Below are positions 20,997-23,467 of a stretch of DNA of 32,031 nucleotides, in pieces. Position 1 is the stretch's first letter; each line of letters opens with the position of its first letter. This DNA is from Coriobacteriaceae bacterium. GTDB lineage: Bacteria; Actinomycetota; Coriobacteriia; Anaerosomatales; SLCP01. The notes beneath the pieces are model-generated. The model was not told the DNA's origin. It saw only the letters and a program-made list of their open reading frames with translations, and did no database searches. Made by a program: the position numbers and the translations under genes. Where the stretch lies: NCBI GenBank assembly GCA_003563465.1, contig PWVH01000070.1, positions 1 to 32,031 of the forward strand, in the 5' to 3' direction.

Positions 20997-21713
20997 CTAC
21001 ACGACGTCCTCGAACACCCGTCCGAGAGCACGCCTGAGTAGATGGTTCTTGAGATCGCCCGTTGTTCCGGTGAGTTCTCCGAGAGTCTCCACGAGCTTCT
21101 GCCTCGTTTCCGGTGTCCGATGACGGAACGCAGGCATCAGAGCCTGGCCGAAGAAAGCGGCTTCGCGCTCCGCGAAGGTCTCGTACATTCGCAGATGCCT
21201 GGGCTCTATGCCGAAGCGCCGCAGATCCCATGCGGCATGCGACACACGGACGTCGGCCGGTCCCATCTCGTCTCCATGCTCACCCTCGATTATCTCGACC
21301 AGTCCGAACTCCGCCAGTTCGCGCACGAAAGAAACAGGCAGGCCCAGAGCAGACTGTGCGTCATCGATACGTACGGTCTCAGCCTGCTCGAACGGAAGCA
21401 TCACCGGCTGGGCTGCCGCGGCTTCAGACCCCTTGAGCTCAGGCGGCACCTTGCCCTTGTCGTACTCGGCAAGCTTCTCGCGAATGACGGCCAGAGGCAG
21501 GAAGTGCTCCTTCTGTAGACGCAATATCATCTCGACCCTGGCAAGATCGGACTGCGCGAACTTCCGATAACCGCCAGGTGTACGTTGCGGAGCGATCAAC
21601 CCCTCTTCTTCCAGGAACCGGATCTTGGAGATGGAAAGGTCAGGATAAGCCGGCTGCAGAGTCTCGACGACCTCTCCGATCGTCATGTAATCGCGCGTCT
21701 TCAATTCACTCAC
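20997..21713 (-). CDS. MerR-family transcriptional regulator (FtsR/Rv1828-like)
   Basis: MTIGEVVETLQPAYPDLSISKIRFLEEEGLIAPQRTPGGYRKFAQSDLARVEMILRLQ; adjacent to GarA-like FHA gene as in mycobacteria. Confidence 0.9.
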   Translation of the reverse strand: MSELKTRDYMTIGEVVETLQPAYPDLSISKIRFLEEEGLIAPQRTPGGYRKFAQSDLARVEMILRLQKEHFLPLAVIREKLAEYDKGKVPPELKGSEAAAAQPVMLPFEQAETVRIDDAQSALGLPVSFVRELAEFGLVEIIEGEHGDEMGPADVRVSHAAWDLRRFGIEPRHLRMYETFAEREAAFFGQALMPAFRHRTPETRQKLVETLGELTGTTGDLKNHLLRRALGRVFEDVV

Positions 21714-22165
21714 GCTCCCGTGCCACCCTTGAATAGCATTTGGAACGTCCCCACCTGCACCACATCACCATCTGCTAGCGGAGCTTTGTCGATTCGCACG
21801 CCGTTCACGTAAGTACCGTTGAGAGATTCGGCGTCTTCAATGGAGACCACGTCGCCGACCATCTCGAGAGTCGCATGCTTCCGAGAGACGGTCACGTCGT
21901 TCAGGAAAATGTCGCTCTCTGGGTCGCGACCAATAGTCAGAACGGGACGGTCGATGAAGAACTTCTCACCCAACTCAGGTCCTTTGCGCACGACCAGCGC
22001 GGGGCCTTCCGTCACCTCTTCGACCAAGACATCGGCTTCACCATCGACAGGAGCGCCGACCGGTGAGAAGGACTCGGTAGGTCCTTCCAGCCGTATGTGA
22101 CACTCAGGACACTCAGCGGGAGGCGGATCGCCTAACGGGGTACTGCATACGGGGCATCTCATCAT
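21710..22165 (-). CDS. Zinc-ribbon + FHA domain protein (GarA-like)
   Basis: N-terminal CPVCSTPLGDPPPAECPEC; FHA: FFIDRPVLTIGRDPESDIFLNDVTVSRKHATLEMVGDVVSIEDAESLNGTYVNGVRI. Confidence 0.93.
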   Translation of the reverse strand: MMRCPVCSTPLGDPPPAECPECHIRLEGPTESFSPVGAPVDGEADVLVEEVTEGPALVVRKGPELGEKFFIDRPVLTIGRDPESDIFLNDVTVSRKHATLEMVGDVVSIEDAESLNGTYVNGVRIDKAPLADGDVVQVGTFQMLFKGGTGA

Positions 22166-22220
22166 GATGCGGTCCCTTTCGCCGAGACCGGGTGCCGGAC
22201 GCCGGTCTGGGCTGCGCTGG

Positions 22221-22532
22221 CTAATCGTTCTGCTCCTCGTCTCCGAGAGGCTCTGTCACGTCTATGCTGGACACGCCGCGAGATTCGTTCGACAAGATCT
22301 CGATCAGTCGTTCGATATCGCCTCCGGAGATAACGTCCTCCCCTGCTTCACGTTGATTCTCCAGACGCGATACGAGTTCGGCTCGCAATATGTCGATCTT
22401 TCCGTGCAGTACGCGGCGCCGATACGAGAGCTTCTGCTCTTCCTCGTAGAGCGCGTTCAGCACTTCCCGTAGCTCGTCGTTGCTCTTGTTCTCGAGATCT
22501 AAGAGGACCTCGTCGTACGTGCCATCGCTCAC
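22221..22532 (-). CDS. RsiG-like helical protein, candidate c-di-GMP-binding anti-sigma factor
   Basis: EQKLSYRRRVLHGKIDILRAEL fits E-x3-S-x2-R-x3-(Q/H)-x3-D; preceded by SNDELREVLNALYEEE. Confidence 0.65.
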   Translation of the reverse strand: MSDGTYDEVLLDLENKSNDELREVLNALYEEEQKLSYRRRVLHGKIDILRAELVSRLENQREAGEDVISGGDIERLIEILSNESRGVSSIDVTEPLGDEEQND

Positions 22533-22672: not shown

Positions 22673-23467
22673 TCAACGACATTCTGGGACGACGACGGTG
22701 TCCACAAAGGATTCCGCCAGTGTCACTTCTTCGGCGGTCGACGCACCGGCGGCGAACTCGACTCCGAGACCTTCTCTGAATCCTGCGACTATCGCGTCGC
22801 AGATCTCCGCTTCAGAAGGTATCTCTCCGACGCAGTCCTGCAGCGTCGCTGTGGTCTGGGCGAGTTCCTCCTGCGCACGGCTGTCCAGCCCGAACACCGC
22901 GGCTTCACGAGGGATGTCGCGTGTCAAGGTGAACGATCCGTGCTGCAGAACGGTACCGTTCAGCCATGTCTGCGCGCTCCCCGAAAGCTTGAGTGCGCCG
23001 ACAGACAGGTCGGCTTCGGAGCGGCTCAGGTAGCACGCAGCGGACCTGGCACTCGCACGTGAACATTCGGCTAAGGCCGCGTCAACACCCATTCGGCGGT
23101 ATGCCTCCACCAGAGCGACACAGAAGTGCCGATACGAAGCGGCTACACCCCTAGGAACCCCGTCGGCGAGGGATGCGATGAGCGAGTATGTGATCTCATC
23201 ATCGTGCAGTACGCCCCTGCCGCCCGTGAAGCGGCGCACTGCTTCCACACCGAAACGCCTGCATGCGCCCCAGTCCAGGCATTCTGCGTCCTGGAACCGC
23301 CCGATCGTCACCGTTGAACGCCGCCATCTGTATATCCGAAGGGTAGGAGGAACCCTGTTTCTTGATCGCACGATTTGGATGGCACGATCGAGAGCCATGT
23401 TCCATGCCCCGTCGCCTGGCTCGGTCTCGACGATGAGGCGCCAGGTGGCAGCCGGCACCAGGCTCAC
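22673..23467 (-). CDS. lplA: Lipoate-protein ligase A family (BPL_LplA_LipB)
   Basis: [51 protein letters not shown]; downstream of gcv genes. Confidence 0.9.

What the first reader, a model, noticed from the sequence alone, without database searches (positions are those of the whole stretch)
22221..22532. RsiG-like single-motif protein: possible c-di-GMP-dependent anti-sigma factor
Residues E32-QKL-S36-YR-R39-RVL-H43-GKI-D47 (about 22392-22439) fit the RsiG c-di-GMP motif E(X)3S(X)2R(X)3Q(X)3D, with His in the Gln position. Only one copy is present, so a homodimer as reported for Rubrobacter RsiG is plausible. No WhiG-type sigma lies in the window. It would imply c-di-GMP control outside sporulating actinobacteria.
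Basis: partly seen in the sequence, partly recalled or inferred. Interest (0 to 1): 0.62.

Follow-up and report, generated by a model that had tools for sequence, protein, structure and literature searches.

The report
Single-motif c-di-GMP anti-sigma factor RsiG
A small gene in an uncultured Coriobacteriia bacterium encodes a real member of the known RsiG family of anti-sigma factors that sense the messenger c-di-GMP; its sigma-factor partner is elsewhere in the genome, and relatives carry that sigma factor's promoter in front of their type IV pilin gene, so it most likely switches pili on and off.

Summary
Minus-strand ORF 22221-22532 (103 aa) carries one E-X3-S-X2-R-X3-H-X3-D motif and scores 65.8 bits against Pfam RsiG (PF22802, cut-off 27); Rubrobacter and Streptomyces RsiG are its closest solved relatives. 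The host is a 1.8 Mb Coriobacteriia (Anaerosomatales) genome with one WhiG orthologue on another contig, its c-di-GMP-contacting K/G/R residues intact, and nine GGDEF proteins. In the order, 58 of 61 genomes keep RsiG and 59 keep WhiG; 20 of 20 sister-lineage genomes lacking RsiG also lack WhiG. In 47 of 49 relatives a WhiG-type promoter lies between pilC and the type IV pilin gene (1.8% of shuffles). Best reading: a homodimeric, c-di-GMP-armed anti-WhiG controlling type IV pili, as in Rubrobacter. His at the Gln position is ordinary: Conexibacter RsiG has it and binds c-di-GMP. New member of a known kind; what appears new is its presence in at least three further classes, a fixed rsiG-FHA-MerR block and the conserved pilin promoter. 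Binding, dimerisation and anti-sigma action are untested, and this genome's own pilC-pilA region is not assembled.

The parts
22221..22532 (-). rsiG-like gene, 103 aa, GTG start, single c-di-GMP motif
   Evidence: PF22802 65.8 bits; 7lq2 E=5.6e-8, 6pfj E=9.3e-8; translation
22392..22439 (-). c-di-GMP binding motif E32-X3-S36-X2-R39-X3-H43-X3-D47
   Evidence: sequence; S, R, H, D invariant and E at 90% or more in 39 homologues
22353..22481 (-). predicted long helix, residues 18-60, carrying the motif (would be the coiled-coil helix of the homodimer)
   Evidence: AlphaFold2 monomer with 39-row alignment, block-mean pLDDT about 85-94 over this helix
21710..22165 (-). FHA-domain protein (GarA/OdhI-like, N-terminal Cys cluster), next gene on the same strand, conserved neighbour
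   Evidence: PF00498 72.7 bits; best NCBIfam OdhI 108.7 bits but below that model's cut-off of 200; follows rsiG in 64 of 65 loci
20997..21713 (-). MerR-family regulator (FtsR-like by position and recall), conserved neighbour
   Evidence: ORF; follows the FHA gene in 64 of 65 loci
22673..23467 (-). lipoate-protein ligase-like gene preceding rsiG; gcvPB and gcvH further upstream
   Evidence: ORFs; same order in most close relatives; function named from sequence recall, not searched

Best explanation
The gene encodes a single-motif RsiG. [quoted passage not shown] this assembly clamps the genome's WhiG sigma factor and keeps it off RNA polymerase when c-di-GMP is high. When c-di-GMP falls WhiG is released and transcribes from TAAAG-N14/15-GCCGATA promoters, chiefly the type IV pilin operon. 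Shown here: family membership, intact motif, presence and co-retention of WhiG with its c-di-GMP-contacting residues, presence of GGDEF enzymes, and the conserved promoter before the pilin gene in relatives. Inferred from the Rubrobacter and Streptomyces structures: dimerisation, c-di-GMP binding and sequestration. Inferred by relatedness: that this particular genome has the pilin promoter, because its pilC-pilA region is not assembled.
For: PF22802 65.8 bits; PDB relatives 7lq2, 7lq4, 6pfj. One WhiG, TIGR02479 290.6 bits against cut-off 189.6, best PDB match Streptomyces WhiG 6pfj E=4.9e-93; K52/G56/R57 align without gaps to K57/G61/R62 of that chain, the residues that contact c-di-GMP, invariant in 29/29 relatives. 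xerC beside whiG in 29/29 and rpsB in 27/29 relatives. Nine GGDEF loci. RsiG 58/61 and WhiG 59/61 above cut-off in the order; WhiG above cut-off in 0/20 RsiG-less sister-lineage genomes. Exact promoter 11 hits in 61 genomes, 0 in the reversed-pattern control, most of them next to pilC/pilin/pilD genes. pilC-pilA gaps: 47/49 with at most 2 of 12 mismatches, shuffles 1.8%, opposite strand 0/49, reversed letters 0/49. Literature: Rubrobacter RsiG-WhiG and type IV pilus promoters.
Against: No binding or expression data. The window genome itself has no pilC match; its contig C91 stops 26 bp after pilB, so the pilin promoter could not be read there. In this genome alone a 2-mismatch scan for the promoter is hardly above its control (44 against 34). 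The monomer model says nothing about the dimer, and Foldseek found no meaningful match. The relatives are not independent, so 47/49 overstates the statistics.
Confidence: 0.85

Rival explanations
1. RsiG-family protein that binds c-di-GMP and WhiG, but whose main regulon is not type IV pili in this species (for example sensory or surface genes), the pilus cluster having been lost here.
For: No PilC match in the window genome; a few exact promoters in relatives precede other genes: a 5TMR histidine kinase (L206) and a cytochrome-like gene (L205).
Against: PilB (444 bits, MshEN domain) and PilT-like ATPases are present and the contig ends right after pilB; 7 of 8 family members have pilC with the promoter before the pilin gene.
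Confidence: 0.1
2. Degenerate or repurposed RsiG: an alpha-helical protein of this family that no longer binds c-di-GMP and acts on another partner, such as the neighbouring FHA or MerR proteins.
For: The gene is not next to whiG but in a fixed rsiG-FHA-MerR block in 64/65 loci.
Against: All c-di-GMP motif positions are conserved; RsiG and WhiG are kept and lost together; WhiG keeps its c-di-GMP contacts.
Confidence: 0.04
3. Chance motif in an unrelated coiled-coil protein.
For: The motif alone is short; long helical proteins are rich in E, R, S, Q and D.
Against: Expected 0.085 per window and, decisively, profile and pairwise homology to RsiG.
Confidence: 0.01

Closest known systems
Rubrobacter radiotolerans RsiG (PDB 7lq2, 7lq3, 7lq4; PMC8325347)
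   Same: Single motif, short protein, about 45 aligned residues around the motif; WhiG partner present; WhiG-type promoters in the type IV pilus genes
   Different: His instead of Gln at the fourth motif position; different class (Coriobacteriia rather than Rubrobacteria)
Conexibacter woesei RsiG (PMC8325347)
   Same: Single motif with His at the Gln position; shown there to bind a c-di-GMP probe (Kd 25 uM) and its WhiG
   Different: Class Thermoleophilia; full sequences not compared here
Streptomyces venezuelae RsiG (PDB 6pfj, 6pfv)
   Same: Same family and motif; the partner sigma is the closest solved relative of this genome's WhiG
   Different: Twin-motif monomer that controls sporulation

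Membership tests
RsiG (single-motif form) | Profile match to RsiG family PF22802 | tested here: met
   65.8 bits, cut-off 27
RsiG (single-motif form) | E(X)3S(X)2R(X)3[Q/H](X)3D motif | tested here: met
   residues 32-47; conserved in homologues; His accepted by the published consensus
RsiG (single-motif form) | Only one motif; no second helix equivalent to alpha5 of Streptomyces RsiG | tested here: met
   one profile stretch in 103 aa; one match per genome in all 58 positive genomes of the order
RsiG (single-motif form) | Motif lies on a long helix | tested here: met
   predicted helix 18-60
RsiG (single-motif form) | Homodimeric antiparallel coiled coil | not testable with these tools
   the structure tool folds single chains only
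RsiG (single-motif form) | Cognate WhiG sigma factor with conserved K-X3-G-R contacts | tested here: met
RsiG (single-motif form) | Binds c-di-GMP and WhiG | not testable with these tools
   needs biochemistry
RsiG-WhiG control of type IV pili | WhiG-type promoters in the pilus cluster | tested here: inconclusive
   met in 47/49 relatives; the window genome's own region is not assembled

The most novel reading that the evidence does not exclude
Type IV pilus control by a single-motif RsiG-WhiG switch is the ancestral condition of deep-branching Actinomycetota, and the fixed rsiG-FHA(GarA/OdhI-like)-MerR block ties c-di-GMP signalling functionally to Ser/Thr-kinase signalling and to division or metabolism.
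Probability: 0.2. Interest if true: 0.55.

Novelty: new member of a known kind. Interest (0 to 1): 0.36.

Why it matters
PMC8325347 found single-motif RsiG only in five genomes of Rubrobacteria and Thermoleophilia and inferred pilus control in Rubrobacter alone. Here the same form is nearly universal in an order of Coriobacteriia and present in Ca. Aquicultoria and Ca. Geothermincolia, and the pilin promoter is conserved in 47 of 49 testable genomes of the order. This supports the proposal that the single-motif dimer is ancestral, and it suggests that pilus control is an old job of the switch rather than a Rubrobacter peculiarity. It is an extension of a known system, not a new one.

Tried and rejected
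Promoter scan in the window genome alone: hardly above control, so no own-genome regulon is claimed; the one exact hit with 14-16 spacing (C3:12542) has no obvious gene behind it and no Rfam match. Foldseek with the monomer model: no match at E <= 0.001, uninformative for a lone helix. NCBIfam has no match for this protein. Scan of own GGDEF loci for WhiG-type promoters at 2 mismatches gave only scattered weak hits. The sigma-4 contacts of Rubrobacter WhiG could not be mapped with certainty because that alignment was not printed, so they are not used as evidence. Chance-motif and non-RsiG readings were rejected on homology.

Full report
What is there. The interval 22221-22532 holds, on the minus strand, a 103-residue ORF starting with GTG behind an AAAGGGG run. 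In six frames of the window this motif (with Q or H allowed) occurs once; 0.085 are expected from residue shuffles.

Family. Pfam RsiG (PF22802) matches residues 11-79 with 65.8 bits against a cut-off of 27. phmmer against the PDB puts the R. radiotolerans RsiG chains (7lq2, 7lq3, 7lq4; E about 6e-8) and S. venezuelae RsiG (6pfj, annotated AmfC; E = 9e-8) on top. In an alignment of 39 homologues S36, R39, H43 and D47 are invariant and E32 is at least 90% conserved. A monomer model has one long helix, residues 18-60, carrying the motif, with block-mean pLDDT about 85-94, and a short second helix 70-85; Foldseek with it was uninformative.

His for Gln. PMC8325347 reports that His often replaces Gln in the first motif of twin-motif RsiGs, that it can make the same stacking contact, and that the single-motif C. 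woesei RsiG with His binds a c-di-GMP probe with Kd 25 uM, against 12 uM for the Gln-bearing R. radiotolerans protein. In the loci examined here His is the rule.

Organism. The nearest named relatives are Coriobacteriia and Anaerosomatales metagenome-assembled genomes (taxonomy). A member of the same family, G006, has its rsiG on a contig of the same length (129744) as Anaerosomatales isolate C14-13. The window's genome has 1.80 Mb in 167 contigs, 90.65% complete.

Partner sigma. The genome has exactly one sigma factor above the FliA/WhiG cut-off, 290.6 bits, at G000:C93:17799-18473. Its best solved match is S. venezuelae WhiG (E = 4.9e-93), and K52, G56, R57 align without gaps to K57, G61, R62, the sigma-2 residues that touch c-di-GMP. 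They are invariant in 29 relatives. The genome's SigF-like paralogue has K..SR instead of K..GR, and a FliA of known structure has neither the G nor the R. whiG sits between xerC and rpsB-tsf-pyrH-frr, an arrangement kept in relatives (xerC 29/29, rpsB 27/29). From memory, Streptomyces whiG also lies near rpsB; this was not checked here. Nine GGDEF loci show that c-di-GMP is likely made.

Co-retention. In 61 genomes of the order, 58 have RsiG, each with one match, and 59 have WhiG above the cut-off; one of the two others, G033, has a strong match cut at a contig end. In a phylum sample 246 of 397 genomes have an RsiG match. The 20 listed same-class genomes of other families (f17-f19) lack it, and none of these 20 has WhiG above the cut-off.

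Target. The exact flagellar/WhiG promoter TAAA-N15-GCCGATAA occurs 11 times in the 61 genomes and never in the reversed-letter control; all 11 continue as TAAAG. Most lie between a pilC gene and a pilin gene upstream of the prepilin peptidase. Of the 49 genomes with a full pilC, 47 have TAAAG-N14/15-GCCGATA with at most two of twelve mismatches between pilC and the pilin start, 42 with at most one. Shuffled intergenic regions reach this in 1.8%, the opposite strand and the reversed motif in 0 of 49. The G after TAAA was learned from the 11 exact hits, and the genomes are related, so the numbers are descriptive. In two family members a further such site precedes the minor pilin genes. The window genome lacks pilC in its assembly; a contig ends 26 bp after its pilB, which itself has an MshEN domain. 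So the pilus link for this species rests on its relatives.

Mechanism. By analogy with the (RsiG)2-(c-di-GMP)2-WhiG structure, high c-di-GMP arms an RsiG dimer to hold WhiG; low c-di-GMP frees WhiG to transcribe pilin genes. Dimerisation, binding and sequestration are inferred, not shown.

What is new. The 2021 study found single-motif RsiG only in Rubrobacteria and Thermoleophilia. The loci here add Coriobacteriia (order Anaerosomatales), Ca. Aquicultoria and Ca. Geothermincolia. No held paper mentions RsiG together with Coriobacteriia. rsiG is followed by an FHA gene and a MerR gene in 64 of 65 loci across these classes and Thermoleophilia (the exception, L059, runs out of contig). This is a new member of a known kind with a useful extension of range and target.

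Noticed in passing
window 20997-22532 (minus) and loci L047-L111: rsiG, an FHA protein (GarA/OdhI-like) and a MerR regulator form a fixed three-gene block in 64 of 65 loci over four classes of Actinomycetota; the functional link is unexplained.
   Followed up: partly
L272:2783-4558 (G000:C91): The genome's PilB-like ATPase carries an MshEN domain, a known c-di-GMP-binding domain type, so pili may be under c-di-GMP control at two levels; the contig ends 26 bp after this gene.
   Followed up: no
L114:1501-1528 (G000:C3:12542): The only exact WhiG-type promoter match with 14-16 spacing in the window genome has no obvious ORF close downstream but a terminator-like hairpin about 100 bases on; no Rfam match.
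   Followed up: partly
L274:3772-3798 (minus): A one-mismatch WhiG-type promoter lies just before the likely start of a Crp/Fnr-type regulator in the window genome.
   Followed up: no
L206:32-1527 (minus): In one relative an exact WhiG-type promoter lies 33 bases before a 5TMR-LYT histidine kinase gene.
   Followed up: no
L059:4752-5060: One close RsiG homologue has Gly instead of the motif's first Glu (AEGQRLSYRRRVLHGKID), the only motif-residue departure among the loci read.
   Followed up: no
genomes G072-G291 (families f17-f19, same class): RsiG and WhiG are both missing from all 20 examined genomes of the sister lineages, suggesting joint loss.
   Followed up: partly
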